A stretch of 64,000 bases of DNA from Nymphaea colorata (taxonomy: Eukaryota > Streptophyta > Magnoliopsida > Nymphaeales > Nymphaeaceae): NCBI RefSeq assembly GCF_008831285.2, contig NC_045150.1:8880001-8944000 (forward strand), read 5' to 3'. The notes under the pieces were generated by a model that saw only the letters and a program-made list of their open reading frames with translations, did not search any database and had not been told where the DNA came from. Numbering within the stretch: position 1 is the stretch's first letter; every line of letters begins with the position of its first letter. Position numbers and translations under genes: made by a program. Shown piece after piece: positions 36,409-64,000 of the stretch.

Positions 36409-36453
<45 letters not shown>

Positions 36454-36885: not shown

Positions 36886-36890
36886 TATAC

Positions 36891-37177
36891 TGTAGAAACA
36901 CGAACCACACAGAGAGAGAGTGGAGAACGAACACACAATCTACGTGGAAAACCTCAGAAAGAGGTGAAAAACCACGGGGAGGCTCTGACCTAGGGGCACA
37001 CCGCAACCCTAGGAGAGAGAAAAATTATATTTCACTTACTTCAACACTAAACACAAGTGACAATATAAAGAGGGAGAGAGGAGAAGCCGCCTAGGGTACC
37101 GAGCCCGCCTCGGTACCCGCGCCCCATAGAACCGGGTCCAGGAATGGATCCGGTTCCCACAGCAACATATTCTAACA
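36891..37177 (-). repeat. 3' LTR of the copia element
   Basis: 287 bp, apparently identical to 41813-42099. It contains a perfect 10-bp inverted repeat GGGTACCGAG / CTCGGTACCC with a 5-base loop at 37094-37118, and a second imperfect one (AACCGGGTCC / GGATCCGGTT) at about 37131-37157. On the sense (minus) strand TTTATATTG near 37062 is TATA-like. The pol stop codon (37172-37174) lies inside this LTR. Confidence 0.97.
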
Positions 37178-40015: not shown

Positions 40016-41356
40016 TCATCGCAGAACAGTAGATCTATCGTTCACACCAGACAAGTGACCACTCGTGGCAGAAATCAATGCTGAAGCAACTTGTACCGGC
40101 AGCCTGTAGAGCCCATCAGTAACCGAACCAATCCCAATCTTCTTCCCCGTCACCAAGTCCTGCAGGGAACAATGATCAGCAGAGAAAATCAGATTACAGT
40201 TTAATTCTTTAGTAATACTGCTGACAGAGAGTAAGTTGACAGGAATATTGGGAACATGCAGGGCATTGTGAAGACGGTATTTGTTCAACAGGGACAAGCT
40301 CCCTTTCCCAGCCACAGAGATAGAAGACCCATCTGCCATAGACACGCGTTGCTTGCCAGAAGAAAGTTGATATTCTTGAAAGAGTTTAGAGTCCCCTGTC
40401 ATGTGGTGAGTGGCTCCACTATCAACAATCTTGAGTTGAGCAGGGGACAACTTGGACTTTGCACCACTAGAAGAATTGCTCTGACTGGAATCAGACACAG
40501 AAGGGCTACGCTTGCCAGAGGGAGGACGACCTCTGACCAGTCTCTTCTCGGGATGAAGATCCCAACAGAAATCCACCGAATGCCCCAACTTGTGGCAATG
40601 AGTGCAATGTCGGGCAGGACGCTGCCCAGTCCCTGAGGCACGGCTGACAAAGGCAGAAGGGCCATGACCGGTGTCAAGATGCATCACCTGGCGACGTTGT
40701 TCTTCAGACTCAACACGAGCATATACTTCCTCTATCCCCGGAATCTCATCACCATTAAGAATCTGGCTACGAATAGACTCAAATTCATCCCGCAGGCCTC
40801 CCAGAAACAGAAACGTACGGTCCATCCATTCCTTTTCCCAGTAGAGGGAATGATCTGAACCGCATGTCCACTCATCAGTCACATGATAATCTAACTCCTC
40901 CCACTTGGTCTTCAGGGCAGCATAGAAGGCAGCAACAGACAAATCACCCTGTGTCAGAGAGTAAATACTGCGTTTAATCTGATAGGTGCGCAAATGTCTC
41001 TTCTTGCGACCATACATCTTTGCAAGCACAGTCCACATATCAAAAGAGGTCGGCTTCCGCAGAATGAGGGGCTGAATATCGGATGACACGGAGCTGATAA
41101 TCCACACCTTCACTTGGCTGTCCTCCAACGCCCACGTCGCCCATTGAGGATCAGATTTAATGGGCGCAGGTTTGTCGCCAGTGATGTAAGAGAGACGCCC
41201 ACGGCTAGTAATCCCAATCTCGAGAGCGGCAGACCAAGATAGGTAATTGTCCTTGGTCAGACGGATGGAGGTGACCTGGAGCGGCACGTTCTCAGTCTTG
41301 GAGGCGCTGCCCGTGTCAAGAACGGCATCTTTTTGAGTCCCCATCGCTTCTGCCAT
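40016..41356 (-). CDS. gag: Copia Gag and aspartic protease (ends at premature TGA)
   Basis: 446 codons from the ATG at 41354-41356, beginning MAEAMGTQKD. The N-terminal capsid region contains LTKDNYLSWSAALE, typical of plant copia Gag. A CCHC zinc knuckle (CTHCHKLGHSVDFC, about residues 251-264) binds RNA. The protease active site is DSGATHHMTG (about 313-322). The frame then enters the GAG-pre-integrase region and stops at TGA (40016-40018), exactly where the family has a conserved Trp before His-x-Arg-Leu-Gly-His. The frame downstream is intact, so a TGG-to-TGA change is the simplest explanation. One continuous polyprotein is the norm for the family. Confidence 0.93.
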   Translation of the reverse strand: MAEAMGTQKDAVLDTGSASKTENVPLQVTSIRLTKDNYLSWSAALEIGITSRGRLSYITGDKPAPIKSDPQWATWALEDSQVKVWIISSVSSDIQPLILRKPTSFDMWTVLAKMYGRKKRHLRTYQIKRSIYSLTQGDLSVAAFYAALKTKWEELDYHVTDEWTCGSDHSLYWEKEWMDRTFLFLGGLRDEFESIRSQILNGDEIPGIEEVYARVESEEQRRQVMHLDTGHGPSAFVSRASGTGQRPARHCTHCHKLGHSVDFCWDLHPEKRLVRGRPPSGKRSPSVSDSSQSNSSSGAKSKLSPAQLKIVDSGATHHMTGDSKLFQEYQLSSGKQRVSMADGSSISVAGKGSLSLLNKYRLHNALHVPNIPVNLLSVSSITKELNCNLIFSADHCSLQDLVTGKKIGIGSVTDGLYRLPVQVASALISATSGHLSGVNDRSTVLR

Positions 41357-41400
41357 CACAAACTAGCACACAGCAACAAGAGGCACAGCAGCGGGAATGA

Positions 41401-41460
41401 GGCAACGGCGTCGGGAAGGAGGCAACGGCGTCGGGAAGGAGGCAACGGCGTCGGGAAGGA
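41401..41460. repeat. Three exact 20-bp repeats in the retrotransposon leader
   Basis: Three consecutive copies of GGCAACGGCGTCGGGAAGGA lie between the primer-binding site and gag. A second, longer duplicated block with GGAACAGAGGACGGCGGCGG lies at about 41593-41735. The leader is strongly G+C-rich compared with the rest of the element. Confidence 0.93.
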
Positions 41461-41800
41461 GGCAGCGGCGACGGCGGCTGGAATGAGGCAGAGGCAACGT
41501 AAAGCAGGCGACGACGCAACACAGAGGCCACCCACGGTGGCAGAAACAAAGAACGGGACGAACGGAGGACCGCGGAGGCGTAACAGAGGGCGGCGGAACA
41601 GAGGACGGCGGCGGCAGAGCAGGGCGACGTCACAAGGGCAGCAGCGACGCCGGAACAGAGGACGGCGGCGGCGGAACAAAGGACAGCGGCGGCAAAGCAG
41701 GGCGACGTCACACGGGCAGCAGCGGCGCCGGAACTTCAACGGCGTCGGGCGACGAAAAAACTTGACGATCCTTGGAAAAAACGCTTCTCCAACTCCGCTG

Positions 41801-41812
41801 GCTCTGATACCA
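41801..41812 (-). other. Primer-binding site (initiator tRNA-Met)
   Basis: TGGTATCAGAGC on the minus strand sits directly next to the 5' LTR. It is the standard plant copia PBS, complementary to the 3' end of initiator tRNA-Met. Confidence 0.96.
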
Positions 41813-42099
41813 TGTAGAAACACGAACCACACAGAGAGAGAGTGGAGAACGAACACACAATCTACGTGGAAAACCTCAGAAAGAGGTGAAAAACCACGGG
41901 GAGGCTCTGACCTAGGGGCACACCGCAACCCTAGGAGAGAGAAAAATTATATTTCACTTACTTCAACACTAAACACAAGTGACAATATAAAGAGGGAGAG
42001 AGGAGAAGCCGCCTAGGGTACCGAGCCCGCCTCGGTACCCGCGCCCCATAGAACCGGGTCCAGGAATGGATCCGGTTCCCACAGCAACATATTCTAACA
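41813..42099 (-). repeat. 5' LTR of the copia element
   Basis: 287 bp, apparently identical to 36891-37177. Its outer edge is followed by TATAC, the second copy of the target-site duplication. Confidence 0.97.
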
Positions 42100-42104
42100 T
42101 ATAC

Positions 42105-42790
42105 CAATCGTTTTTAAATACCATTCCTGATTTTGGATGACATAACTAGTATATATTTGCAAACTTGTGAAACTATTTTTATTCAAGTCAACTTTTTTAA
42201 AAACAATTCCTAATTTTGGATGGCATGAAATTTTATCAAGCTTTTTTAGTGGCAGCCAACAATGCCTTTTTGTTTTGTTGCCAAATATTCCTAAAGCTTC
42301 CTAGCTTTTTAAGTTTATTTTGGACCTTTCTTAAAGATTTCTCCTAAAATCGTATAAGTCACAAATTTTTACAATTTTTCAAATAAGTGAACGTTTTTTC
42401 TCTAATTTTCTTGACTTTTGAACAAAAAGTTAATGCAGTTCATTCTTTTTGATTTTTTTCTAAATCATTGCAACTCATAAGCGTTCATGAAGTTTTGAAG
42501 TTATATATGTTTGCAAATTTGTGAGAAAATTATCATCAAAATTCGCTTTTTGTAGATTTTTTTTCTCTTAACTTTTTATGAACATTTCAAACTATCATGC
42601 ACTTTTGCTTTTCTTTCCAAATCTTCGTAAAAGTTTCCTAGTTCTTTTAAAATTTTATTATCCGCTATTTCTACCAAAATATGTTAAAAGTGCAACAAAC
42701 TTTTACAAATTTTGGATTTTTGTCAACATTGATTTGTCTAAAATTTTCATGATCTGAATTGAGGATTGAAAATTTTTAAATTTTTTTGAG
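42105..42790. repeat. Degenerate T-rich tandem repeats interrupted by the retrotransposon
   Basis: Segments with TTTGCAAA.TTGTGA, CCAAAT.TTC.TAAA.TTCCTAG and ACAAA.TTTTACAA recur about 340 bp apart (near 42160 and 42500; 42280 and 42615; 42360 and 42700). Related text, such as ACCAAATATTTGTGAAACCTTGG, appears left of the element near 36635-36660. This suggests the element landed inside an older degenerate repeat. Alignment by eye only. Confidence 0.45.
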
Positions 42791-43111: not shown

Positions 43112-46100
43112 GAGATATATACTATATGAACAAGTTGTGATCTTCAATGATTCCTTGGATTGTTTTGCCAACAAGGTGGATATAAATATTTGAATCCTGA
43201 ATTAGGACATTCCAACATTGGACAATTATCTTTGCTGTTCCCCATTCAATGATTTTGTATTGAATATTTAATATGTATTAATTGTACAAGGAAAGTTAAA
43301 ATCCTTATTATTGGCACAAGGATCATTTTCATTGCCTATGACCTTTCAACTTGTTTATTGGGAGGCTTCGGAGATCGCCCACATGATGTTGAAAATTGGA
43401 TTGTAGACCACGGTCATATACATAAATCCAAACGCAAGTACAACATCTAACTAAGATCATGTTAGACCTGTGATCTAAATTCTAGTTGAAAACACCTAAA
43501 GCCGGACATATCAGACCTCTGGTCCGGACCCTTGATATGAATTTCAACATCTATACCGGATCACATGATGCCCTCTACCAAATTCAACATCTCAATTGAA
43601 TCAGATTCAGCCTCTAATCCAAGTCATTGGTCCCGAATGAAAATCCAACGTCTAAGACGAATCAGATTAGACCTCTGATTCCATTTGAGATTTTAATTCC
43701 GAGCTCAACAACTTATCCGGGTCAGATCAGACCTCTGATCCAACTTCCCAATATGACATTGTGTATCATTGGTATGATATTATTTCTCATCAAATAAATG
43801 TTGGATGTATGATTGGTGGTTCGGGAAGATGATTGTGGACGATTTTTGGAAAAGAGATGTGTATTGTATTAGCAATTATGATATTCAATTATTCTTTGGA
43901 CAATGTTGTCAAGAAGATTGATATAAACATTTGAATGAAGGCTTGGGATATTCCCACCTTGGAAAATTGTCTTTGATGTCTCCCATTCCAAGATTTTGTA
44001 TTGAATATTTCATATGTTATAATTGTAGATGGAAAAATTGAAATCTTCACCCATTTGACAAAGATCATTTTTGTTACTCTTGTCCTTAGGACTTGTTTAT
44101 TGGGATGCTTAGGATATCAACCACTTGATGTCAAAAAAAGGATCGTATATCCCGATCGTGCACTTAAATGCAAATCCAAGTACAACATTTAAATACATCA
44201 TATGAAACATGAGATCTGCACTCTTGTTTTAACATCCAAATCCAACACTCGAAGGCGGGCAGATAAGACCTCTGGTCCAGACCCAAGATATGAATTGGGT
44301 TAAGCATCTTATTTAAATCATTGATCCCAAACCAAAATCCAACACTTAAGCCGGATCAGAGTAGAGTTCTGACTTAGGCCGAGATTTTATGTCCGATTTG
44401 AACACCTTGTCTGGGTTAGATGGACCTCTAATCCAAATTCTCGGATGACATATTCTATGATTTCTATGATATTCTTTCTAATCAAATAAATGTAGGACCT
44501 ATGATTGACGGTTTAAGAAGTTGATTGTTGCGTGTTTTAGAAAAAGAGATGCATACTATATGAACAATTTGTGATCTTCAACGATTCTTTGGATTGTTTT
44601 GCCAACAAGATCGATATAAATATTTGAATCGTGAATGAGGACATTCCAACATTGGATAATTATCTTTGTTTTTCCCCATTCAATGATTTTGTATAGAATG
44701 TTTAATATGTATTAATTGTATATGGAAAATTAAAATCCTTATTGTTGGCACAAGGATCATTTTCATTGTTTATGACGTATCAACTAGATTGTTTGGAGGC
44801 TTAGGAGATCGCCCACATGATGTTGAGAATTGGATTGTAGACCACGGTCATAGACATAAATCCAAACGCAAGTACAACATCTAACTAAGATCATGTTAGA
44901 CCCGTGATCTAAATTCTAGTTGAAAACACCTAAAGCCGGACAGATCAGAGGTCCGGACCCTTGATAGGAATTTCAACATCTATACCAGATCACATGATGC
45001 CCTCTACCAAATTCAACATCTCAATTGAATCAGATTCAGCCTCTAATCCAAGTCATTGGTCCCAAATGAAAATCCAACGTCTACGACGAATCAGATTGGA
45101 CCTCTGATTCCATTTGAGATTTTAAAACCGAGCTCAACAACTTATCCGTGTCAGATCTGACCTCAGATCCAACTTCCCAATATGACATTGTGTATCATTG
45201 GTATGATATTATTTCTCATCAAATAAATGTTGGATGTATGATTGGTGGTTCGGGAAGATGTTTGTGGACGATTTTTGGAAAAGGGATGTGTATTGTATGA
45301 GCAATTTATGATATTCAATTATTCTTTGGACAATGTTGTCAAGAAGATTGATATAAATATTTGAATGAGGGCTTGGGATATTCCAACCGTGGAAAATTGT
45401 CTTTGATGTCCCCCATTCCAAGATTTTGTATTGAATATTTCATATGTTATAATTGTAGATGGAAAAATTGAAATCTTCACCCATTTGACAAAGATCATTT
45501 TTGCTACTCTTGTCCTTAGGACTTGTTTATTGGGATGCTTAGGATATCAACCACTTGATGTAAAAAAGTGGATCGTATATCCCGATCGTGCACTAAAATG
45601 CAAATCCAAGTACAACATTTAAATACATCATATGAAACATGAGATCTGCACTCTTGTTTTAACATCCAACTCCAACACTTGAAGGAAGGCAGATAAGACC
45701 TCTGTTCCAGACCCAAGGTATGAATTGGGTTAAGCATCTTTTCAGATCCCAAACCAAAATCCAACACTTATGCCGGATCAGAGTAGACTTCTGATTCATG
45801 CCGAGATTTTATATCCGATTTCAACACCTTGTCTGGGTTAGATAGACCTCTAATCCAAATTCTCGGATGACATATTCTATGATTTCTATGATATTCTTTC
45901 TAATCAAATAAATGTAAGACGTATGATTGACGGTTTAAGAAGTTGATTGTTGCGTGTTTTAGAAAAAGAGATGCATACTATATGAACAATTTGTGATCTT
46001 CAATGATTCTTTGGATTGTTTTGCCAACAAGATCGATATAAATATTTGAATCGTGAATTAGGACATTTCAACATTGGATAATTATCTTTGTTGTTCCCCA

Positions 46101-49100
46101 TTCAATGATTTTGTATTGAATGTTTAATATGTATTAGTTGTACATGGAAAATTAAAATCCTTATTGTTGGCACAAGGATCGTTTTCATTGTTTATGACCT
46201 TTCAACTAGATTGTTGGTTGGCTTCGGAGATCGCCTAGATGATGTTGAGAATTGGATTGTAGACCATGGTCATGGACATAAATCCAAGCGCAAGTACAAC
46301 ATCTAACTAAGATCATGATGGACCTGTGATCTAAATTCTAGTTGAAAACACCTAAAGCCGGACAGATCATACCTCTGGTCCGGACCCTTGATATGAATTT
46401 CAGCATCTATACCGGACCACATGCTGCCCTCTACCAAATTCAACATCTCAATTTTATCAGATTCAGCCTCTAATCCAAGTCACTGGTCCCGAATGAAAAT
46501 CCAACGTCTAAGACGAATCAGATTAGACCTTTGATTCCATTTGAGATTTTAAATCCGAGCTCAACAACTTATCCGGGTCAGATCAGACCTCTGATCCAAC
46601 TTCCCAATATGACATTGTGTATCATTGGTATGATATTATTTCTCATCAAATAAATGTTGGATGTATGATTGGTGGTTCGGGAAGATGATTGTGGACGATT
46701 TTTGGAAAAAGGATGTGTATTGTATGAGCATTTTATGATATTCAATTATTCTTTGGACAATGTTGTCAAAAAGATCGTTATAAATATTTGAATGAAGGCT
46801 TGGGATATTCCAACCGTGGAAAATTGTCTTTAATGTCCCCCATTCCAAGATATTGTATTGAATATTTCATATGTCATAATTGTAGATGGAAAAATTGAAA
46901 TCTTCACCCATTTGACAAAGATCATTTTTGTTACTCTTGTCCTTAGGACTTGTTTATTGGGATGCTTAGGTTATCAACCACTTGATGTCAAAAAGTGGAT
47001 CGTATATCCCTATCGTGCACTTAAATGCAAATCCAAGTAGAACATTTAAATACATCATATGAAACGTGAGATCTGCACTCTTGTTTTAACATCCAAATCC
47101 AACACTTGAAGGCGGGCAGATAAGACCTCTGGTCCCGACCCAAGATATGAATTGGGTTAAGCATCTTATTTAAATCATTGATCCCAAACCAAATTCCAAC
47201 ACTTATGCCGGATCAGAGTAGACTTCTGATTCATGTCGAGATTTTATATCCGATTTCAACACCTTGTCTGGGTTAGATGGACCTCTAATCCAAATTCTCG
47301 GATGACATATTCTATGATTTCTATGATATTCTTTCTAATCAAATAATTGTAGGACGTATGATTGACGGTTTAAGAAGTTGATTGTTGCGTGTTTTAGAAA
47401 AAGAGATGCATACTATATGAACAATTTGTGATCTTCAATGATTCTTTGGATTGTTTTGCCAACAAGATCGATATGAATATTTGAATCGTGACTTAGGACA
47501 TTCCAACATTGGATAATTATCTTTGTTGTTCCCCATTCAATGATTTTGTATTGAATGTTTAATGTGTATTAATTGTACATGGAAAATTAAAATCCTTATT
47601 GTTGGCACAAGGATCGTTTTCATTGTTTATGACCTTTCAACTAGATTGTTGGTTGGCTTCCGAGATCGCCTAGATGATGTTGAGAATTGGATTGTAGACC
47701 ACAGTCATGGACATAAATCCAAGCGCAAGTACAACATCTAACTAAGATCATGTTAGACCTGTGATCTAAATTCTAGTTGAAAACACCGAAAGCCGAACAG
47801 ATCAAACCTCTGTTTCGGACCCTTGATATGATTTTTCAACATCTATACCAGATCACATGATGCCCTCTGCCAAATTTAACATTTCAATTGAATCCGATTC
47901 AGTCTCTAATCCAAGTCATTGGTCCCGAATGAAAATCCAACGTCTAAGACGAATCAGATTAGACCTCTGATTCCATTTGAGATTTTAAATCCGAGCTCAA
48001 CAACTTGTCCGGGTCAGATCAGACCTCTGATCCAACTTCCCAATATGACATTGTGTATCATTGGTATGATATTATTTTTCATCAAATAAATGTTGGATGT
48101 ATGATTGGTGGTTCTGGAAGATGATTGTGGACGATTTTTGGGAAAGGGCTGTGTATTGTATGAGCAATTTATGATATTCAATTATTCTTTGGACAATGTT
48201 GTCAAGAAGATTGTTATAGATATTTGAATGAATGCTTGGGATATTCCAACCGTGGAAAATTGTCTTTGATGTCCCCCATTCCAAGATTTTGTATTGAATA
48301 TTTCATATGTCATAATTGTAGAAGGAAAAATTGAAATCTTCACCCATTTGACAAAGATCATTTTTGTTATTCTTGTCCTTAGGACTTGTTTATTGGGATG
48401 CTTAGAATATCAACCACTTGATGTCAAAAAGTGGATCGTATATCCCTATCGTGCACTTAAATGCAAATCCAAGTAGAACATTTAAATACATCATATGAAA
48501 CATGAGATCTGCACTCTTGTTTTATCATCCAAATCCAACACTTGAAGGCGGGCAGATAAGACCTCTGGTCCAGACCCAAGATATGAATTGGGTTAAGCAT
48601 CTTATTTAAATCATTGATCCGAAACCAAAATCCAACGCTTAAGCCGGATCAGAGTAGACTTCTGATTCATGTCGAGATTTTATATCCGATTTCAACACCT
48701 TGTCTGGGTTAGATGGACCTCTAATCCAAATTCTCGGATGACATATTCTATGATTTCTATGATATTCTTTCTAATCAAATAAATGTAGGACCTATGATTG
48801 ACGGTTTAAGAAGTTGATTGTTGCGTGTTTTAGAAAAAGAGATGCATACTATATGAACAATTTGTGATCTTCAATGATTCTTTGGATTGTTTTGCCAACA
48901 AGATCGATATGAATATTTGAATCGTGACTTAGGACATTCCAACATTGGATAATTATCTTTGTTGTTCCCCATTCAATGATTTTGTATTGAATGTTTAATG
49001 TGTATTAATTGTACATGGAAAATTAAAATCCTTATTGTTGGCACAAGGATCGTTTTCATTGTTTATGACCTTTCAACTAGATTGTTGGGAGGCTTAGGAG

Positions 49101-50273
49101 ATCGCCTAGATGATGTTGAGAATTGGATTGTAGACCACGGTCATGGACATAAATCCAAGTGCAAGTACAACATCTAACTAAGATCATGTTAGACCTGTGA
49201 TCTAAATTATAGTTGAAAACACCTAAAGCCGGACATATCAGACCTCTGGTCCGGACCCTTGATATGAATTTCAACATCTATACCGGATCACATGATGCCC
49301 TCTACCAAATTCAACATCTCAATTGAATCATATTCAGCCTCTAATCCAAGTCATTGGTGTCAAATGAAAATCCAACGTCTAAGACGAATCAGATTAGACC
49401 TCTTATTCTATTTGAGATTTTAAATCCGAGCTGAACAAATTATCCGAGTCAGATCAGACCTCTGATCCAACTTCCCAATATGACATTGTGTATCATTGGT
49501 ATGATATTATTTCTCATCAAATAAATGTTGGATGTATGATTGGTGGTTCGGGAAGATGATTGTGGACGATTTTTGGAAAAGGGATGTGTATTGTATGAGC
49601 AATTTATGATATTCAATTATTCTTTGGACAATGTTGTCAAGAAGATTGTTATAAATATTTGAATGAAGGCTTGGGATATTCCAACAGTGGAAAATTGTCT
49701 TTGATGTCCCCCATTCCAAGATTTTGTATTGAATATTTCATATGTTATAATTGTAGATGGAAAGATTGAAATCTTCACCCATTTGACAAAGATCATTTTT
49801 GTTACTCTTGTCCTTCGGACTTGTTTGTTGGGATGCTTAGGATATCAACCACTTGATGTCAAAAAGTGGATCTTATATCCCGATCGTGCACTTAAATGCA
49901 AATCCAAGTAGAACATTTAAATACATCATATGAAACATGAGATCTGCACTCTTGTTTTAACATCCAAATCCAACACTTGAAGGCGGGCAGATAAGACCTC
50001 TGGTCCCGACCCAAGATATGAATTGGGTTAAGCATCTTATTTAAATCATTGATCCCAAACCGAAATCCAACACTTAAGCCGGATCAGAGTAGACTTCTGA
50101 TTCATGCCGAGATTTTATATCCGATTTCAACACCTTGTCTGGGTTAGATGGACCTCTAATCCAAATTCTCGGATGACATATTCTATGATTTCTATGATAT
50201 TCTTTCTAATCAAATAAATGTAAGACGTATGATTGACGGTTTAAGAAGTTGATTGTTGCGTGTTTTAGAAAAA

Positions 50274-51009
50274 GAGATGCATACTATATGAACAATTTGT
50301 GATCTTCAATGATTCTTTGGATTGTTTTGCCAACAAGATCGATATAAATATTGGAATCGTGAATGAGGACATTCCAACATTGGATAATTATCTTTGTTGT
50401 TCCCCATTCAATGATTTTGTATTGAATGTTTAATATGTATTAATTGTACATGGAAAATTAAAATCCTTATTGTTGGCACAAGGATCGTTTTCATTGTTTA
50501 TGACCTTTCAACTAGATTGTTGGTTGGCTTCGGAGATCGCCTAGATGATGTTGAGAATTGGATTGTAGACCCCGGTCATGGACATAAATCCAAGCGCAAG
50601 TACAACATCTAACTAAGATCATGTTAGACCTGTGATCTAAATTATAGTTGAAAACACCTAAAGCCGGACAGATCAGACCTCTGGTCCGGACCCTTGATAT
50701 GAATTTCAACATCTATACCGGATCACATGATGCCCTCTGCCAAATTCAACATCTCAATTGAATCAGATTCAGCCTCTAATCCAAGTCATTGGTCCCGAAT
50801 GAAAATCCAACGTCTAAGACGAATCAGATTAGACCTTTGATTCCATTTGGGATTTTAAATCCGAGCTCAACAACTTGTCCGGGTCAGATCAGACCTCTGA
50901 TCCAACTTCCCAATATGACATTGTGTATCATTGGTATGATATTATTTCTCATCAAATAAATGTTGGATGTATGATTGGTGGTTCGGGAAGATGATTGTGG
51001 ACGATTTTT
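50274..51009. repeat. Half-monomer A of the satellite (example from unit 6)
   Basis: The first half of each unit begins GCATACTATATGAACAATTT and contains TGATCTTCAATGATTCTTTGG and GATATAAATATT. It aligns along its length with the second half (B), which begins GTGTATTGTATGAGCAATTT with TGATATTCAATTATTCTTTGG and shares the TATTTGAAT and CCCCATTC landmarks. The 1.43-kb unit is therefore an ancient dimer of halves of about 0.7 kb, now well diverged. Confidence 0.85.
50604..50919. repeat. Subrepeat block inside half A (unit 6)
   Basis: Six tandem segments start with an AACATCTAA-like word at 50604, 50653, 50708, 50748, 50809 and 50869 (49, 55, 40, 61, 60 and about 51 bp). Most then carry a GATCAGATTAGACCTCTGATCC-like core. 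The core forms a short inverted repeat, for example GATCAGA-CC-TCTGATC at 46581-46596 in unit 3. Half B has at least three more degenerate versions. Seen by eye; spacing is irregular. Confidence 0.75.
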
Positions 51010-51744
51010 GGGAAAGGGCTGTGTATTGTATGAGCAATTTATGATATTCAATTATTCTTTGGACAATGTTGTCAAGAAGATTGTTATAGATATTTGAATG
51101 AATGCTTGGGATATTCCAACCGTGGAAAATTGTCTTTGATGTCCCCCATTCCAAGATTTTGTATTGAATATTTCATATGTTATAATTGTAGATGGAAAGA
51201 TTGAAATCTTCACCCATTTGACAAAGATCATTTTTGTTACTCTTGTCCTTCGGACTTGTTTATTGGGATGCTTAGGATATCAACCACTTGATGTCAAAAA
51301 GTGGATCGTATATCCCGATCGTGCACTTAAATGCAAATCCAAGTAGAACATTTAAATACATCATATGAAACATGAGATCTGCACTCTTGTTTTAACATCC
51401 AAATCCAACACTTGAAGGCGGGCAGATAAGACCTCTGGTCCCGACCCAAGATATGAATTGGGTTAAGCATCTTATTTAAATCATTGATCCCAAACCAAAA
51501 TCCAACACTTATGCCGGATCAGAGTAGACTTCTGATTCATGCCGAGATTTTATATTCGATTTCAACACCTTGTCCGAGTTAGATGGACCTCTAATCCAAA
51601 TTCTCTTGTCTGGGTTAGGTGGACCTCTAATCCAAATTCTAGGATGACATATTCTATGATTTCTATGATATTCTTTCTAATCAATTAAATGTAAGACGTA
51701 TGATTGACAGTTTAAGAAGTTGATTGTTGCGTGTTTTAGAAAAA
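51010..51744. repeat. Half-monomer B of the satellite (example from unit 6)
   Basis: The second half of the unit, homologous to half A but with its own substitutions and fewer copies of the AGACCTCTGATCC core. It runs to the next GAGATGCATACTATATG. In this unit it also carries the private 36-bp duplication listed separately. Confidence 0.8.
51569..51640. repeat. 36-bp tandem duplication private to satellite unit 6
   Basis: Two adjacent copies (51569-51604 and 51605-51640) both start CTTGTC, contain GGACCTCTAATCC and end AAATTCT. All other units have one copy. It explains the 1471-bp length of this unit. Confidence 0.93.
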
Positions 51745-54700
51745 GAGATGCATACTATATGAACAATTTGTGATCTTCAATGATTCTTTGGATTGTTTTG
51801 CCAACAAGATCGATATAAATATTTGAATCGTGAATTAGGACATTCCAACATTGGATAATTATCTTTGTTGTTCCCCATTCAATGATTTTGTATTGAATGT
51901 TTAATGTGTATTAATTGTACATGGAAAATTAAAATCGTTATTGTTGGCACAAGGATCGTTTTCATTGTTTATGACCTTTCAACTAGATTGTTGGTTGGCT
52001 TCGGAGATCACTTAGATGATGTTGAGAATTGGATTGTAGACCACGGTCATGGACATAAATCCAAGCGCAAGTTCAACATCTAACTAAGATCATGTTAGAC
52101 CTGTGATCTAAATTATAGTTGAAAACACACCTAAAGCCGGACAGATCAGACCTCTGGTCCGGACCCTTGATATGAATTTCAACATCTATACCGGATCACA
52201 TGATGCCCTCTGCCAAATTCAACATCTCAATTGAATCAGATTCAGCCTCTAACCCAAGTCATTGGTCCCAAATGAAAATCCAACGTCTAAGACGAATCAG
52301 ATTAGACCTCTGATTCCATTTGAGATTTTAAATCCGAGCTCAACAACTTATCCGGGTCAGATCAGACCTCTGGTCCAACTTCCCAATATGACATTGTGTA
52401 TCATTGGTATGATATTATTTCTCATCAAATAAATGTTGGATGTATGATTGCTGGTTCGGGAAGATGATTTGGGAAAGGGATGTGTATTGTATGAGCAATT
52501 TATGATATTCAATTATTCTTTGGACAATGTTGTCAAGAAGATTGTTATAGATATTTGAATGAATGCTTGGGATATTCCAACCGTGGAAATTTGTCTTTGA
52601 TGTCCCCCATTCCAAGATTTTGTATTGAATATTTCATATGTTATAATTGTAGATGGAAAGATTGAAATCTTCACCCATTTGACAAAGATCATTTTTGTTA
52701 CTCTTGTCCTTCGGACTTGTTTATTGGGATGCTTAGGATATCAACCACTTGATGTCAAAAAGTGGATCGTATATCCCGATCGTGCACTTAAATGCAAATC
52801 CAAGTAGAACATTTAAATACATCGTATGAAACATGAGATCTGCACTCTTGTTTTAACATCCAAATCCAACACTTGAAGGCGGGCAGATAAGACCTCTGGT
52901 CCCGACCCAAGATATGAATTGGGTTAAGCATCTTATTTAAATCATTGATCCCAAACCAAAATCCAACACTTATGCCGGATCAGAGTAGACTTCTGATTCA
53001 TGCCGAGATTTTATATCCGATTTCAACCCCTTGTCTGGGTTAGATGGACCTCTAATCCAAATTATCGGATGACATATTCTATGATTTCTATGATATTCTT
53101 TCTAATCAAATAAATGTAGGACATATGATTGACGGTTTAAGAAGTTGATTGTTGCGTGTTTTAGAAAAAGAGATGCATACTATATGAACAATTTGTGATC
53201 TTCAATGATTCTTTGGATTGTTTTGCCAACAAGATCGATATAAATATTTGAATCGTGAATTTGGACATTCCAACATTGGATAATTATCTTTGTTGTTCCC
53301 CATTCAATGATTTTGTATTGAATGTTTAATATGTATTAATTGTACATGGAAAATTAAAATCCTTATTGTTGGCACAAGGATCGTTTTCATTGTTTATGAC
53401 CTTTCAACTAGATTGTTGGGAGGCTTAGGAGATCGCCTAGATGATGTTGAGAATTGGATTGTAGACCACGGTCATGGACATAAATCCAAGCGCAAGTACA
53501 ACATCTAACTAAGATCATGTTAGACCTGTGATCTAAATTCTAGTTGAAAACACCGAAAGCCGAACAGATCAAACCTCTGTTTCGGACCCTTGATATGAAT
53601 TTCAACATCTATACCGGATCACATGATGCCCTCTGCCAAATTCAACATCTCAATTGAATCAGATTCAGCCTCTAATCCAAGTCATTGCTCCCAAATGAAA
53701 ATCCAACGTCTAAGACGAACCAGATTAGACCTCTGATTCTATTTGAGATTTTAAATCCGAGCTCAACAACTTATCCGGGTCAGATCAGACTTCTGATCCA
53801 ACTTCCCAATATGACATTGTGTATCATTGGTATGATATTATTTCTCATCAAATGAATGTTGGATGTATGATTGGTTGTTCGGGAAGATGATTGTGGACGA
53901 TTTTTGGAAAAGAGGTGTATTGTATGAGCAATTTATGATATTCAATTATTCTTTGGACAATGTTGTCAAGAAGATTGTTATAAATATTTGATTGAAGGCT
54001 TGGGATATTCCAACCGTGGAAAATTGTCTTTGATGTCCCCCATTCCAAGATTTTGTATTGAATATTTCATATGTTATAATTGTAGATGGAAAGATTGAAA
54101 TCTTCACCCATTTGACAAAGATCATTTTTGTTACTCTTGTCCTTCGGACTTGTTTATTGGGATGCTTAGGATATCAACCACTTGATGTCAAAAAGTGGAT
54201 CGTATATCCCGATCGTGCACTTAAATGCAAATCCAAGTACAACATTTAAATACATCATATGAAACTTGAGATCTGCACTCTTGTTTTAACATCCAAATCC
54301 AACACTTGAAGGCGGACAGATAAGACCTCTGGTCCAGACCCAAGATATGAATTGGGTTAAGCATCTTATTTAAATCATTGATCCCAAACCAAAATCCAAC
54401 ACTTAAGCCGGATCAGAGTAAACTTCTGATTCATGCCGAGATTTTATATCCGATTTCAACACCTTGTCTGGGTTTGATGGACCTCTAATCCAAATTCTCG
54501 GATGACATATTCTATGATTTCTATGATATTCTTTCTAATCAAATAAATGTAAGACGTATGATTGACGGTTTAAGAAGCTGATTGTTGCGTGTTTTAGAAA
54601 AAGAGATGCATACTATATGAACAATTTGTGATCTTCAATGATTCTTTGGATTGTTTTGCCAACAAGATCGATATGAATATTTGAATCGTGAATTAGGACA

Positions 54701-57471
54701 TTCCAACATTGGATGATTATCTTTGTTGTTCCCCATTCAATGATTTTGTATTGAATGTTTAATGTGTATTAATTGTACATGGAAAATTAAAATCGTTATT
54801 GTTGGCACAAGGATCGTTTTCGTTGTTTATGACCTTTCAACTAGATTGTTGGGAGGCTTAGGAGATCGCCTAGATGATGTTGAGAATTGGATTGTAGACC
54901 ACGGTCATGGACATAAATCCAAGCGCAAGTACAACATCTAACTAAGATCATGTTAGACCTGTGATCTAAATTCTAGTTGAAAACACCTAAAGACGAACAG
55001 ATCAGACCTCTGTTTCGGACCCTTGATATGAATTTCAACATCTATACCGGATCACATGATGCCCTCTACCAAATTCAACATCTCAATTGAATCAGATTCA
55101 GCCTCTAATCCTAGTCATTGGTGTCAAATGAAAATCCAACGTCTAAGACGAATCAGATTAGACCTCTGATTCTATTTGAGATTTTAAATCCGAGCTCAAC
55201 AACTTATCCGGGTCAGATCAGACTTCTGATCCAACTTCCCAATATGACATTGTGTATCATTGGTATGATATTATTTCTCATCAAATGAATGTTGGATGTA
55301 TGATTGGTTGTTCGGGAAGATGATTGTGGACGATTTTTGGAAAAGAGGTGTATTGTATGAGCAATTTATGATATTCAATTATTCTTTGGACAATGTTGTC
55401 AAGAAGATTGTTATAAATATTTGAATGAAGGCTTGGGATATTCCAACCGTGGAAAATTGTCTTTGATGTCCCCCATTCCAAGATTTTGTATTGAATATTT
55501 CATAGGTCATAATTGTAGATGGAAAAATTGAAATCTTCACCCATTTGACAAAGATCATTTTTGTTACTCTTGTCCTTAGGACTTGTTTATTGGGATGCTT
55601 AGAATATCAACCACTTGATGTCAAAAAGTGGATCGTATATCCCGATCGTGCACTTAAATGCAAATCCAAGTACAACATTTAAATACATCATATGAAACTT
55701 GAGATCTGCACTCTTGTTTTAACATCCAAATCCAACACTTGAAGGCGGACAGATAAGACCTCTGGTCCAGACCCAAGATATGAATTGGGTTAAGCATCTT
55801 ATTTAAATCATTGATCCCAAACCAAAATCCAACACTTAAGCCGGATCAGAGTAAACTTCTGATTCATGCCGAGATTTTATATCCGATTTCAACACCTTGT
55901 CTGGGTTTGATGGACCTCTAATCCAAATTCTCGGATGACATATTCTATGATTTCTATGATATTCTTTCTAATCAAATAAATGTAAGACGTATGATTGACG
56001 GTTTAAGAAGCTGATTGTTGCGTGTTTTAGAAAAAGAGATGCATACTATATGAACAATTTGTGATCTTCAATGATTCTTTGGATTGTTTTGCCAACAAGA
56101 TCGATATGAATATTTGAATCGTGAATTAGGACATTCCAACATTGGATAATTATCTTTGTTGTTCCCCATTCAATGATTTTGTATTGAATGTTTAATGTGT
56201 ATTAATTGTACATGGAAAATTAAAATCCTTATTGTTGGCACAAGGATCGTTTTGATTGTTTATGACCTTTCAACTACATTGTTGGTTGGCTTCGGAGATC
56301 GCCTAGATGATGTTGAGAATTGGATTGTAGACCACGGTCATGGACATAAATCCAAGCGCAAGTACAACATCTAACTAAGATCATGTTAGACCTGTGATCT
56401 AAATTCTAGTTGAAAACACCGAAAGCCGAACAGATCAGACCTCTGGTCCGGACCCTTGATATGAATTTCAACATCTATACCGGAACACATGATGCCCTCT
56501 GCCAAATTCAACATGTCAATTGAATCAGATTCAGTCTCTAATCCAAGTCATTGGTCCCGAATGAAAATCCAACGTCTAAGACGAATCAGATTAGACCTCT
56601 GATTCCATTTGAGATTTTAAATCCGAGCTCAACAACTTATCCGGGTCAGATCAGACCTCTGATCCAACTTCCCAATATGACATTGTGTATCATTGGTATG
56701 ATATTATTTCTCATCAAATAAATGTTGGATGTATGATTGGTGGTTCGGGAAGATGATTGTGGACGATTTTTGGAAAAGGGATGTGTATTGTATGAGCAAT
56801 TTATGATATTCAATTATTCTTTGGACAATGTTTGTCAAGAAGATTGTTATAGATATTTGAATGAATGCTTGGGATATTCCAACCGTGGAAATTTGTCTTT
56901 GATGTCCCCCATTCCAAGATTTTGTATTGAATATTTGATATGTTATAATTGTAGATGGAAAGATTGAAATCTTCACCCATTTGACAAAGATCATTTTTGT
57001 TACTCTTGTCCTTCGGACTTGTTTATTGGGATGCTTAGGATATCAACCACTTGATGTCAAAAAGTGGATCGTATATCCCGATCGTGCACTTAAATGCAAA
57101 TCCAAGTAGAACATTTAAATACATCGTATGAAACATGAGATCTGCACTCTTGTTTTAACATCCAAATCCAACACTTGAAGGCGGGCAGATAAGACCTCTG
57201 GTCCCGACCCAAGATATGAATTGGGTTAAGCATCTTGTTTAAATCATTGATCCCAAACCAAAATCCAACACTTATGCCGGATCAGAGTAGACTTCTGATT
57301 CATGCCGAGATTTTATATCCGATTTCAACCCCTTGTCTGGGTTAGATGGACCTCTAATCCAAATTATCGGATGACATATTCTATGATTTCTATGATATTC
57401 TTTCTGATCAAATAAATGTAGGACGTATGATTGACGGTTTAAGAAGTTGATTGTTGCGTGTTTTAGAAAAA

Positions 57472-60400
57472 GAGATGCATACCATATGAACAATTTGTGA
57501 TCTTCAATGATTCTTTGGATTGTTTTGCCAACAAGATCGATATAAATATTTGAATCCGGAATTAGGACATTCCAACATTGGATAATTATCTTTGTTGTTC
57601 CCCATTCAATGATTTTGTATTGAATATTTAATATGTATTAATTGTACATGGAAAATTAAAATCCTTATTGTTGGCACAAGGACCGTTTTCATTGTTTATG
57701 ACCTTTCAACTAGATTGTTGGGAGGCTTAGGAGATCGCCTAGATGATGTTGAGAATTGGATTGTAGACCACGGTCATGGACATAAATCCAAGCGCAAGTA
57801 CAACATCTAACTAAGATCATGTTAGACCTGTGATCTAAATTCTAGTTGAAAACACCTAAAGCCGAACAGATCAGACCTCTGTTTCGGACCCTTGATATGA
57901 ATTTCAACATCTATACCGGATCACATGATGCCCTCTACCAAATTCAACATCTCAATTGAATCAGATTCAGCCTCTAATCCTAGTCATTGGTGTCATATGA
58001 AAATCCAACGTCTAAGACGAATCAGATTAGACCTCTGATTCTATTTGAGATTTTAAATCCGAGCTCAACAACTTATCCGGGTCAGATCAGACTTCTGATC
58101 CAACTTCCCAATATGACATTGTGTATCATTGGTATGATATTATTTCTCATCAAATGAATGTTGGATGTATGATTGGTTGTTCGGGAAGATGATTGTGGAC
58201 GATTTTTGGAAAAGAGGTGTATTGTATGAGCAATTTATGATATTCAATTATTCTTTGGACAATGTTGTCAAGAAGATTGTTATAACTATTTGAATGAAGG
58301 CTTGGGATATTCCAACCGTGGAAAATTGTCTTTGATGTCCCCCATTCCAAGATTTTGTATTGAATATTTCATAGGTCATAATTGTAGATGGAAAAATTGA
58401 AATCTTCACCCATTTGACAAAGATCATTTTTGTGACTCTTGTCCTTAGGACTTGTTTATTGGGATGCTTAGAATATCAACCACTTGATGTCAAAAAGTGG
58501 ATCGTATATCCCGATCGTGCACTTAAATGCAAATCCAAGTACAACATTTAAATACATCATATGAAACTTGAGATCTGCACTCTTGTTTTAACATCCAAAT
58601 CCAACACTTGAAGGCGGACAGATAAGACCTCTGGTCCAGACCCAAGATATGAATTGGGTTAAGCATCTTATTTAAATCATTGATCCCAAACCAAAATCCA
58701 ACACTTAAGCCGGATCAGAGTAAACTTCTGATTCATGCCGAGATTTTATATCCGATTTCAACACCTTGTCTGGGTTTGATGGACCTCTAATCCAAATTCT
58801 CGGATGACATATTCTATGATTTCTATGATATTCTTTCTAATCAAATAAATGTAAGACGTATGATTGACGGTTTAAGAAGCTGATTGTTGCGTGTTTTAGA
58901 AAAAGAGATGCATACTATATGAACAATTTGTGATCTTCAATGATTCTTTGGATTGTTTTGCCAACAAGATCGATATGAATATTTGAATCGTGAATTAGGA
59001 CATTCCAACATTGGATAATTATCTTTGTTGTTCCCCATTCAATGATTTTGTATTGAATGTTTAATGTGTATTAATTGTACATGGAAAATTAAAATCCTTA
59101 TTGTTGGCACAAGGATCGTTTTGATTGTTTATGACCTTTCAACTACATTGTTGGTTGGCTTCGGAGATCGCCTAGATGATGTTGAGAATTGGATTGTAGA
59201 CCACGGTCATGGACATAAATCCAAGCGCAAGTACAACATCTAACTAAGATCATGTTAGACCTGTGATCTAAATTCTAGTTGAAAACACCGAAAGCCGAAC
59301 AGATCAAACCTCTGTTTCGGACCCTTGATATGAATTTCAACATCTATACCGGATCACATGATGCCCTCTGCCAAATTCAACATGTCAATTGAATCAGATT
59401 CAGTCTCTAATCCAAGTCATTGGTCCCGAATGAAAATCCAACGTCTAATTCCATTTGAGATTTTAAATCCGAGCTCAACAACTTATCCGGGTCAGATCAG
59501 ACCTCTGATCCAACTTCCCAATATGACATTGTGTATCATTGGTATGATATTATTTCTCATCAAATAAATGTTGGATGTATGATTGGTGGTTCGGGAAGAT
59601 GATTGTGGACGATTTTTGGAAAAGGGATGTGTATTGTATGAGCAATTTATGATATTCAATTATTCTTTGGACAATGTTGTCAAGAAGATTGTTATAGATA
59701 TTTGAATGAATGCTTGGGATATTCCAACCGTGGAAAATTGTCTTTGATGTCCCCCATTCCAAGATTTTGTATTGAATATTTCATATGTTATAATTGTAGA
59801 TGGAAAGATTGAAATCTTCACCCATTTGACAAAGATCATTTTTGTTACTCTTGTCCTTCGGACTTGTTTATTGGGATGCTTAGGATATCAACCACTTGAT
59901 GTCAAAAAGTGGATCGTATATCCCGATCGTGCACTTAAATGCAAATCCAAGTAGAACATTTAAATACATCATATGAAACATGAGATCTGCACTCTTGTTT
60001 TAACATCCAAATCCAATACTTGAAGGCGGGCAGATAAGACCTCTGGTCCCGACCCAAGATATGAATTGGGTTAAGCATCTTGTTTAAATCATTGATCCCA
60101 AACCAAAATCCAACACTTATGCCGGATCAGAGTAGACTTCTGATTCATGCTGAGATTTTATATCCGATTTCAACCCCTTGTCTGGGTTAGATAGACCTCT
60201 AATCCAAATTATCGGATGACATATTCTATGATTTCTATGATATTCTTTCTAATCAAATAAATGTAGGACGTATGATTGACGGTTTAAGAAGTTGATTGTT
60301 GCGTGTTTTAGAAAAAGAGATGCATACCATATGAACAATTTGTGATCTTCAATGATTCTTTGGATTGTTTTGCCAACAAGATCGATATAAATATTTGAAT

Positions 60401-63161
60401 CGTGAATTAGGACATTCCAACATTGGATAATTATCTTTGTTGTTCCCCATTCAATGATTTTGTATTGAATGTTTAATATGTATTAATTGTACATGGAAAA
60501 TTAAAATCGTTATTGTTGGCACAAGGATCGTTTTCATTGTTTATGACCTTTCAACTAGATTGTTGGGAGGCTTAGGAGATCGCCTAGATGATGTTGAGAA
60601 TTGGATTGTAGACCACAGTCATGGACATAAATCCAAGCGCAAGTACAACATCTAACTAAGATCATGTTAGACCTGTGATCTAAATTCTAGTTGAAAACAC
60701 CTAAAGCCGAACAGATCAGACCTCTGTTTCGGACCCTTGATATGAATTTCAACATCTATACCGGATCACATGATGCCCTCTACCAAATTCAACATCTCAA
60801 TTGAATCAGATTCAGCCTCTAATCCTAGTCATTGGTGTCATATGAAAATCCAACGTCTAAGACGAATCAGATTAGACCTCTGATTCTATTTGAGATTTTA
60901 AATCCGAGCTCAACAACTTATCCGGGTCAGATCAGACTTCTGATCCAACTTCCCAATATGACATTGTGTATCATTGGTATGATATTATTTCTCATCAAAT
61001 GAATGTTGGATGTATGATTGGTTGTTCGGGAAGATGATTGTGGACGATTTTTGGAAAAGAGGTGTATTGTATGAGCAATTTATGATATTCAATTATTCTT
61101 TGGACAATGTTGTCAAGAAGATTGTTATAACTATTTGAATGAAGGCTTGGGATATTCCAACCGTGGAAAATTGTCTTTGATGTCCCCCATTCCAAGATTT
61201 TGTATTGAATATTTCATAGGTCATAATTGTAGATGGAAAAATTGAAATCTTCACCCATTTGACAAAGATCATTTTTGTGACTCTTGTCCTTAGGACTTGT
61301 TTATTGGGATGCTTAGAATATCAACCACTTGATGTCAAAAAGTGGATCGTATATCCCGATCGTGCACTTAAATGCAAATCCAAGTACAACATTTAAATAC
61401 ATCATATGAAACTTGAGATCTGCACTCTTGTTTTAACATCCAAATCCAACACTTGAAGGCGGACAGATAAGACCTCTGGTCCAGACCCAAGATATGAATT
61501 GGGTTAAGCATCTTATTTAAATCATTGATCCCAAACCAAAATCCAACACTTAAGCCGGATCAGAGTAAACTTCTGATTCATGCCGAGATTTTATATCCGA
61601 TTTCAACACCTTGTCTGGGTTTGATGGACCTCTAATCCAAATTCTCGGATGACATATTCTATGATTTCTATGATATTCTTTCTAATCAAATAAATGTAAG
61701 ACGTATGATTGACGGTTTAAGAAGCTGATTGTTGCGTGTTTTAGAAAAAGAGATGCATACTATATGAACAATTTGTGATCTTCAATGATTCTTTGGATTG
61801 TTTTGCCAACAAGATCGATATGAATATTTGAATCGTGAATTAGGACATTCCAACATTGGATAATTATCTTTGTTGTTCCCCATTCAATGATTTTGTATTG
61901 AATGTTTAATGTGTATTAATTGTACATGGAAAATTAAAATCCTTATTGTTGGCACAAGGATCGTTTTGATTGTTTATGACCTTTCAACTACATTGTTGGT
62001 TGGCTTCGGAGATCGCCTAGATGATGTTGAGAATTGGATTGTAGACCACGGTCATGGACATAAATCCAAGCGCAAGTACAACATCTAACTAAGATCATGT
62101 TAGACCTGTGATCTAAATTCTAGTTGAAAACACCGAAAGCCGAACAGATCAAACCTCTGTTTCGGACCCTTGATATGAATTTCAACATCTATACCGGATC
62201 ACATGATGCCCTCTGCCAAATTCAACATGTCAATTGAATCAGATTCAGTCTCTAATCCAAGTCATTGGTCCCGAATGAAAATCCAACGTCTAATTCCATT
62301 TGAGATTTTAAATCCGAGCTCAACAACTTATCCGGGTCAGATCAGACCTCTGATCCAACTTCCCAATATGACATTGTTTATCATTGGTATGATATTATTT
62401 CTCATCAAATAAATGTTGGATGTATGATTGGTGGTTCGGGAAGATGATTGTGGACGATTTTTGGAAAAGGGATGTGTATTGTATGAGCAATTTATGATAT
62501 TCAATTATTCTTTGGACAATGTTGTCAAGAAGATTGTTATAGATATTTGAATGAATGCTTGGGATATTCCAACCGTGGAAAATTGTCTTTGATGTCCCCC
62601 ATTCCAAGATTTTGTATTGAATATTTCATATGTTATAATTGTAGATGGAAAGATTGAAATCTTCACCCATTTGACAAAGATCATTTTTGTTACTCTTGTC
62701 CTTCGGACTTGTTTATTGGGATGCTTAGGATATCAACCACTTGATGTCAAAAAGTGGATCGTATATCCCGATCGTGCACTTAAATGCAAATCCAAGTAGA
62801 ACATTTAAATACATCGTATGAAACATGAGATCTGCAGTCTTGTTTTAACATCCAAATCCAACAGTTGAAGGCGGGCAGATAAGACCTCTGGTCCCGACCC
62901 AAGATATGAATTGGGTTAAGCATCTTATTTAAATCATTGATCCCAAACCAAAATCCAACACTTATGCCGGATCAGAGTAGACTTCTGATTCATGCCGAGA
63001 TTTTATATCCGATTTCAACCCCTTGTCTGGGTTAGATGGACCTCTAATCCAAATTCTCGGATGACATATTCTATGATTTCTATGATATTCTTTCTAATCA
63101 AATAAATGTAGGACGTATGATTGACGGTTTAAGAAGTTGATTGTTGCGTGTTTTAGAAAAA
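57472..63161. repeat. Two copies of a 2,845-bp higher-order satellite repeat
   Basis: Units 11+12 (57472-60316) and 13+14 (60317-63161) form two consecutive 2,845-bp blocks, nearly identical to each other and more alike than neighbouring single units. Within each block the first unit (1433 bp) has GGAAAAGAGGTGTATTG and GGGAGGCTTAGG. The second (1412 bp) has GGAAAAGGGATGTGTATTG, GGTTGGCTTCGG and a 23-bp deletion in half A (near 59450 and 62295). Partial unit 15 again has the first-unit markers. Confidence 0.9.
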
Positions 63162-64000
63162 GAGATGCATACTATATGAACAATTTGTGATCTTCAATGA
63201 TTCTTTGGATTGTTTTGCCAACAAGTTCGATATAAATATTTGAATCGTGAATTAGGACATTCCAACATTGGATAATTATCTTTGTTGTTCCCCATTCAAT
63301 GATTTTGTATTGAATGTTTAATATGTATTAATTGTACATGGAAAATTAAAATCCTTATTGTTGGCACAAGGATCGTTTTCATTGTTTATGACCTTTCAAC
63401 TAGATTGTTGGGAGGCTTAGGAGATCGCCTAGATGATGTTGAGAATTGGATTGTAGACCACGGTCATGGACATAAATCCAAGCGCAAGTACAACATCTAA
63501 CTAAGATCATGTTAGACCTGTGATCTAAATTCTAGTTGAAAACACCTAAAGCCGAACAGATCCGACCTCTGTTTCGGACCCTTGATATGAATTTCAACAT
63601 CTATACCGGATCACATGATGCCCTCTACCAAATTCAACATCTCAATTGAATCAGATTCAGCCTCTAATCCTAGTCATTGGTGTCAAATGAAAATCCAACG
63701 TCTAAGACGAATCAGATTAGACCTCTGATTCTATTTGAGATTTTAAATCCGAGCTCAACAACTTATCCGGGTCAGATCAGACTTCTGATCCAACTTCCCA
63801 ATATGACATTGTGTATCATTGGTATGATATTATTTCTCATCAAATGAATGTTGGATGTATGATTGGTTGTTCGGGAAGATGATTGTGGACGATTTTTGGA
63901 AAAGAGGTGTATTGTATGAGCAATTTATGATATTCAATTATTCTTTGGACAATGTTGTCAAGAAGATTGTTATAAATATTTGAATGAAGGCTTGGGATAT

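What the first reader, a model, noticed from the sequence alone, without database searches (positions are those of the whole stretch)
43112..64000. Satellite with nested periodicity (about 50 bp, 0.7 kb, 1.43 kb, 2.85 kb)
The array shows up to four levels of repetition: short subrepeats with an inverted-repeat core, two diverged halves of about 0.7 kb, a 1.43-kb dimer unit repeated at least 14 times, and a 2,845-bp higher-order block. The unit is much longer than common plant satellites of 150-180 bp. I do not recognise the family, and it occupies a third of the window up to its edge.
Basis: seen in the sequence. Interest (0 to 1): 0.75.

Follow-up and report, generated by a model that had tools for sequence, protein, structure and literature searches.

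The report
Old low-copy nested plant satellite array
A 29-kb stretch of repeated, non-coding plant DNA, built of small repeats inside larger ones, is one of seven such arrays found in this genome, which seem to have been copied between chromosomes together with the DNA around them and then evolved separately.

Summary
The array is real. It runs from window ~43,112 past the window edge to ~C13:8,952,260 (29.1 kb, 20 full dimers). The unit is 1,409-1,471 bp, two diverged halves (~740 + ~690 bp). Dimers 9-16 alternate, giving the 2.85-kb level; a two-dimer segment recurs nine dimers later. The "50-bp" level is an irregular ~60-bp base repeat with an imperfect dyad core, without evidence of compensatory change.

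The family is low-copy: seven arrays on seven large sequences, two remnants, two unplaced C2-type contigs, plus three loci with the ~60-bp base repeat alone. The two halves form two clades; within each, copies group by chromosome, except edge copies and C3 in the larger tree. So the dimer predates the spread and homogenisation is mainly local. Flanks are shared between arrays in two classes, R1 and R2. Flank class predicted where the C1 array falls; R1 arrays themselves are not shown to be one clade. Arrays therefore probably spread inside duplicated blocks rather than as free repeats.

Best reading: non-coding satellite, no demonstrated function, amplified locally, dispersed by block duplication. 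A centromeric role is unlikely but untested. Species probably Nymphaea colorata (inferred). New member of a known kind.

The parts
43112..64000 (+). Satellite array; continues beyond the window to ~C13:8,952,260 (29.1 kb in all, 20 complete dimers)
   Evidence: BLAST, HMM and unit alignment
45981..47415 (+). Example dimer (unit 3): A half ~740 bp, then B half ~690 bp
46360..46625 (+). ~60-bp base repeats of the A half of that dimer (three detected, starts near 46,360, 46,514 and 46,572)
   Evidence: HMM scan
47117..47300 (+). ~60-bp base repeats of the B half of that dimer (three detected, the last weak)
   Evidence: HMM scan
54616..64000 (+). Higher-order zone in the window: alternating dimers 9, 10, 11 and so on (2.85-2.87-kb period)
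   Evidence: unit identities
30031..36887 (+). R1 5' flank shared with C2, C4 and the C2 remnant (in part); left end at the same base in C13, C2 and the C2 remnant
30696..30918 (+). 38-bp tandem repeat (5.9 copies) inside the R1 5' flank
36888..42110 (-). Copia-type retrotransposon inserted into the R1 5' flank of C13; absent at the same place on C4
42111..43088 (+). Rest of the R1 5' flank, directly before the array, shared with C4

Best explanation
A low-copy, non-coding nested satellite family. A ~60-bp base repeat with a dyad core was amplified beside a particular neighbour segment. In one lineage a ~0.7-kb piece holding several base repeats was doubled into a dimer. Arrays of that dimer were then copied, with kilobases of flanking DNA, so that they now lie on at least seven chromosomes. 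Since then each array has been homogenised mainly within itself, by unequal exchange or gene conversion, least at its edges. Shown: nested structure; dimer older than the spread; grouping by chromosome; shared flanks. Inferred: the exchange mechanism, the order base repeat to dimer, joint copying of array and flank, and lack of a sequence-specific function. Silent heterochromatin is expected but untested.
For: A and B halves split with full support and in each half all six chromosomes form single clades in a tree of 87 half-units. Flanks are shared right up to or near the array in two classes. The C1 array, whose flanks are R2, falls with the R2 arrays C3 and C10 in both halves. Flank and array divergence are of the same order. 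Interior dimers of C13 are up to 99.9% alike, edge dimers 19 and 20 only 93.0-95.6% like the others. The base repeat alone, beside the same neighbour segment, is found at C1:35.72, C3:21.07 and C5:0.51 Mb.
Against: Arrays with R1 flanks are not shown to form one clade, and C2 and C4 halves are closer to the R2 arrays C3 and C10 (87.0-89.0%) than to C13 (84.3-85.5%). C2 lacks the R1 3' flank in the 3.2 kb read and C12 lacks the R1 5' flank. Edge copies: 9 of 12 edges match their own array best. In the larger tree C3 is not a single clade. The direction base repeat to dimer is not proved.
Confidence: 0.72

Rival explanations
1. The R1 block is a giant non-autonomous mobile element (about 52.7 kb in C13, 30,031 to C13:8,962,757) that carries the satellite as cargo and moves by defined ends.
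For: C13, C2 and the C2 remnant begin their similarity at the same base with different DNA before it. C4 has an inverted partial copy of that end beyond its array. Direct copies of pieces of DNA flank the C13 block on both sides.
Against: The end occurs only at four places in all (three pattern matches, control 0, plus the window's own). No common right end: C2 remnant and C4 go on alike beyond the C13 limit. The inverted copy was seen on C4 only; none in C13 or the C2 remnant. No transposase found, though not all ORFs were searched.
Confidence: 0.15
2. The arrays are centromeric or another chromosome-structure satellite.
For: At most one array was found per large sequence; C13 and C2 arrays lie near mid-contig.
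Against: Found on 7 of the 15 sequences of 7 Mb or more (C1-C15; lengths); positions 0.09-0.91; about 13-43 kb; near genes on C13. Gaps may hide arrays.
Confidence: 0.05
3. The ~60-bp dyads are binding sites of a protein and the arrays act as docking or regulatory platforms.
For: Dyad arms pair in 74% of cells against 13-23% when slid by 1-3 columns; the base repeat is on one strand throughout the arrays scanned.
Against: No covariation beyond arm shuffles: paired 73.3% when shuffled, p 0.098; double changes 20 against 15.1, p 0.086; within loci p 0.27 and 0.28. Perfect inverted repeats enriched in only 3 of 12 half-units.
Confidence: 0.04
4. The array is an assembly artefact.
For: No raw reads here; C92 and C589 are unplaced contigs of C2-type units, so the C2 array is not fully resolved.
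Against: Seven arrays with coherent phylogeny and shared flanks; C589 repeats the right edge of the C2 array.
Confidence: 0.02

Closest known systems
Plant satellites with long monomers (over 5 kb possible; Gong et al. 2012 as cited in PMC7004042, passage read)
   Same: Long unit, tandem, homogenised within an array
   Different: Here only seven small arrays, no link with centromeres shown; the unit has visible ~60-bp and 0.7-kb ancestry
Tandem repeats in 3' UTRs of Ogre retrotransposons that grew into satellites in Lathyrus sativus (PMC7004042, passages read)
   Same: Satellite grown from a short tandem repeat that lies beside a constant neighbour segment
   Different: Here the neighbour segment holds no identified retrotransposon domain; at C5 it holds an exon-like piece of unknown family
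Helentron (HINE) elements with satellite-like central repeats in Crassostrea gigas (PMC7492417, passages read)
   Same: Repeat arrays associated with array-specific flanking modules
   Different: There 14,591 arrays of 100-500-bp monomers were screened and the most abundant proved to lie in transposons; here seven long arrays and no transposon signature established
Segmental duplications carrying tandem repeats (general knowledge)
   Same: Array and flanks diverged to a similar degree
   Different: Arrays have gone on homogenising, up to 99.9% between dimers inside C13

Membership tests
Satellite DNA | Long head-to-tail array of similar units | tested here: met
   20 complete dimers in 29.1 kb, 93.0-99.9% pairwise
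Satellite DNA | Non-coding | tested here: inconclusive
   Only one ORF of 90 aa or more lies in the array in the window (96 aa, 56,704-56,994, minus); it was not searched further
Satellite DNA | High copy number in the genome | tested here: not met
   Three pattern searches gave 118, 102 and 45 matches, at seven arrays, two remnants and two unplaced contigs among the rows listed (100, 100 and 45); one listed C8 match (L006) proved unrelated, the C3:717 kb match was not checked
Satellite DNA | Higher-order repeat structure (common, not required) | tested here: met
   Dimers 9-16 alternate; 8/17 and 9/18 99.9% alike
Centromeric satellite | Enrichment of CENH3 | not testable with these tools
   No ChIP data
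Centromeric satellite | Present on every chromosome | tested here: not met
   Arrays on 7 of 15 large sequences among the listed matches; assembly gaps are a caveat
Transposon-borne tandem repeat | Defined ends shared by independent copies | tested here: inconclusive
   Left end shared by C13, C2 and the C2 remnant; no shared right end
Transposon-borne tandem repeat | Target-site duplication | tested here: inconclusive
   Only split, 83-98% similar direct pieces outside the C13 block; other loci not testable because right ends are unknown
Transposon-borne tandem repeat | Transposase, Rep/helicase or retrotransposon domains of the block's own | tested here: inconclusive
   In the window only the later Copia has them; two other ORFs of the 5' flank and two outside had no Pfam match; not every ORF was searched

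The most novel reading that the evidence does not exclude
The R1 block is a giant, very low-copy mobile unit with a fixed left end that carries a living satellite as cargo: ready-made nested arrays were transplanted between chromosomes and restarted their own homogenisation at each new site.
Probability: 0.15. Interest if true: 0.65.

Novelty: new member of a known kind. Interest (0 to 1): 0.4.

Why it matters
Satellite families are usually met as huge numbers of copies whose origin is lost. This one is small enough for most steps to be visible: base repeat, dimer, spread with flanks, local homogenisation, edge decay. It is a usable natural experiment on how plant satellites start and spread, probably in an early-branching lineage (species inferred). 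It overturns nothing.

Tried and rejected
DNA searches with the unit and a half-unit consensus listed only C10, because very common words are skipped; three pattern searches replaced them. A C8 place with one mismatch proved unrelated. C4:25.04-25.08 Mb holds inverted pieces of both R1 flanks, but the three stretches fetched there (16 kb of about 46 kb) hold no satellite. Rfam: nothing in the window. Whole-genome duplication as the source of the C13 block: the full-length PEPC relative is on C9; no array or R1 5' flank on C9 is among the listed matches (lists capped or best candidates only), so this is unlikely rather than excluded. An exon-like piece at the C5 locus: no Pfam family, no credible solved structure. 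Covariation of the dyad: not supported. Edge copies as a general proof of joint copying: mixed. Literature: listings for water-lily satellites, for chromosome-specific or block-duplicated plant satellites and for long-monomer ones showed nothing that I recognised as this family; these were listings only. Passages of five papers were read; no whole paper.
Full report
OBSERVATION. The window is G000:C13:8,880,001-8,944,000 of a 407.8-Mb assembly in 783 contigs. A tandem array starts at window ~43,112 and, followed into the next stretch, ends at ~C13:8,952,260, 29.1 kb in all. It holds 20 complete dimers of 1,409-1,471 bp, 14 of them 1,431-1,436 bp. Each dimer has an A half of about 740 bp and a B half of about 690 bp, 67-70% identical in the long BLAST rows. 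Dimers 8 and 9 recur as 17 and 18 at 99.9%. Dimers 19 and 20 at the right edge are only 93.0-95.6% like the rest.

SUBREPEATS. In 11 of 12 half-units from six arrays, short self-similarity exceeded dinucleotide shuffles (0 or 1 of 100 as high); common lags were 60-61, 97-102 and 145-162; the twelfth, a C13 B half, had none. An HMM of the base repeat, seeded on the C5 locus described below and rebuilt from its hits, finds 109 base repeats in the C13 array, all on the + strand, and none in two controls (10 kb of C8 and 20 kb of the window). The base repeat has an imperfect dyad, GGATCAGA-N7-TCTGATCC. Its arms pair in 74.2% of cells against 13-23% when slid, but shuffling the arms among the 127 distinct combinations of locus and arms gives 73.3% (p 0.098); double changes are 20 against 15.1 (p 0.086); within loci p is 0.27 and 0.28. 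So the dyad is a feature of the consensus; compensatory change is not shown. Perfect 7-bp inverted repeats were enriched in 3 of 12 half-units.

GENOME-WIDE DISTRIBUTION. Three patterns gave 118 matches (reversed-pattern control 5; 100 listed), 102 (control 0; 100 listed) and 45 (control 0; all listed). The listed places show arrays on C1 (33.416-33.428 Mb), C2 (19.272-19.295), C3 (2.690-2.707), C4 (25.096-25.115), C10 (within 19.576-19.620), C12 (14.796-14.812) and C13; remnants at C2:31.910-31.911 Mb and C11:386 kb; and two unplaced contigs. Limits come from the stretches read; inner parts of C2, C3, C4, C10 and C12 were not all read. Two other listed matches are not arrays as far as known: C8:5.547 Mb is unrelated and C3:717 kb was not followed. 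In the first 8 kb of C92 and 6 kb of C589 the units are C2-like (six longest matches 95.6-98.9% and 93.0-97.7%). C589 repeats the right edge of the C2 array, so these contigs may be another haplotype or an unresolved part of it. More diverged copies can be missed, and the counts are not a copy number.

PHYLOGENY. A maximum-likelihood tree of 87 near-full-length half-units from six arrays (partial ones were left out) separates A from B halves with full support and, within each, every chromosome forms one clade. Thus the dimer existed before the spread and homogenisation has stayed mainly inside each array. C3 and C10 are sisters in both halves (100/99 in A, 100/97 in B). In a second tree of 100 rows (C13 thinned to 19; C1 and the C2 remnant allowed as partial rows of at least 340 model positions) C1 joins C3 and C10 in both halves (100/99 and 100/96), as its flanks predict. 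Not all C1 rows group together: its 5' edge copy falls with C3 (98/89) and its 3' edge copy with the 3' edge copy of C3 (99/97). C3 itself is not one clade among the B halves there. A BLAST test of 12 edges was mixed: 9 match the interior of their own array best, 3 do not (both C1 edges and the C4 5' edge).

FLANKS. The arrays share their surroundings in two classes. R1: C13, C4, C12 and the C2 remnant share the 3' flank; C13, C2, C4 and, for a shorter stretch, the C2 remnant share the 5' flank. R2: C1, C3 and C10 share 5' and 3' flanks up to the array. C2 has no R1 3' flank in the 3.2 kb read beyond its array; C12 has no R1 5' flank in what was read but carries pieces of the R1 3' end about 6 kb upstream. 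R1 flank pieces are mostly 80-92% identical to C13, the weakest 68%; R2 pieces are 77-91%, the longest (4.2 kb) 88.5%. Array half-consensuses are 83.0-87.5% identical among C13, C2, C4 and C12 and 90.1-91.5% between C3 and C10; but C2 and C4 are closer to C3 and C10 (87.0-89.0%) than to C13, so R1 arrays are not shown to be a clade. Joint copying of array and flanks is the simplest reading, with later rearrangement.

LEFT END OF R1. At window 30,031 the similarity of C13, C2 and the C2 remnant starts at the same base while the DNA before it differs. A pattern from that end matches three places in the genome (control 0); the window's own copy is missed because of an inserted base. C4 has an inverted partial copy of the end beyond its array. 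To the right, similarity with C13 stops at C13:8,962,757, while C4 and the C2 remnant go on alike. This is the basis of the mobile-unit reading, which I keep at 0.15.

LATER CHANGES IN C13. A Copia-type element (36,888-42,110, minus strand; gag, integrase and reverse transcriptase domains) is missing on C4, where the match resumes after 10 bases. About 575 bp of the C13 3' flank are inverted relative to C4, C12 and the C2 remnant.

ORIGIN. The neighbour segment at window 35,301-36,342 recurs at 67-76% at several places, five of which were read: C1:35.72, C3:21.07, C5:0.51, C2:24.19 and C11:0.387 Mb. C1, C3 and C5 have runs of the ~60-bp repeat downstream, without the rest of the 1.43-kb unit (14, 6 and 27 detected); C11 has a partial half-unit; C2:24.19 has none in the 4 kb fetched. 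At C5 the base repeats form their own 386-bp unit (3.3 copies). I infer that the base repeat beside this segment is older than the dimer; the direction is not proved.

SPECIES. Unnamed. Genome size, and chromosome sizes that I derived from SSR counts and densities in PMC9601493 (43.1 and 35.0 Mb for chromosomes 1 and 2, against 44.0 and 36.3 Mb for C1 and C2 here), fit Nymphaea colorata (409 Mb, 14 chromosomes, PMC7015852); passages read, contig lengths. The contig count does not match simply (783 here, 804 scaffolds in print), so this is an inference.

FUNCTION. No evidence for a function was found and none was excluded. The array starts about 16 kb downstream of a PEPC gene (Pfam PEPcase on one exon, E 3.9e-136). 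Scattered positions, small size and absence from 8 of 15 large sequences among the listed matches speak against a centromeric role, which needs CENH3 data. The most likely account is local amplification by unequal exchange plus rare block duplication, with silencing expected but untested.

VERDICT. The structure is ordinary in kind (a nested satellite) and unusual in being low-copy, long-unit and traceable through shared flanks.

Noticed in passing
C10:19,629,248-19,629,888 (L041) and window 25524-26145: A 622-bp piece of a PEPC exon, 98.9% identical to the exon beside the C13 array, lies about 9.8 kb upstream of the C10 array in the same relative orientation; far younger than the arrays. It hints at exchange between array neighbourhoods, or at chance or misassembly.
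   Followed up: partly
L054 (C10:19,584,001-19,593,000): The C10 array contains a composite ~3.2-kb unit: a ~0.67-kb satellite piece alternating with runs of an unrelated-looking ~306-bp tandem repeat, three times in 9 kb.
   Followed up: partly
L041:3618-4418 and C3:2,684,236-2,684,713: A V-type ATPase subunit D gene (Pfam ATP-synt_D), intact on C10 and broken on C3, lies at the outer limit of the R2 5' flank.
   Followed up: partly
window 28578-30010 and C13:8,962,757-8,963,065: Four pieces of the DNA left of the R1 block recur in direct order just right of it (83-98% identical), as if the target had been duplicated or was a repeat.
   Followed up: no
window 34157-34405: About 235 bp match at 75% some 14 unplaced contigs at identical score, in places about 12 kb apart; an rDNA-like or other high-copy repeat, not identified.
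   Followed up: no
window 6833-9598: A 921-aa open frame without a Pfam match, with a 132-bp internal tandem duplication at 7432-7697; it reminds me of plant SCAR proteins (recalled only).
   Followed up: no
L050:168-299, L048:4-132, L051:18-98: An exon-like piece of an unidentified gene, in varying decay, lies upstream of the base-repeat runs on C5 and C3 and at C2:24.19 Mb.
   Followed up: partly
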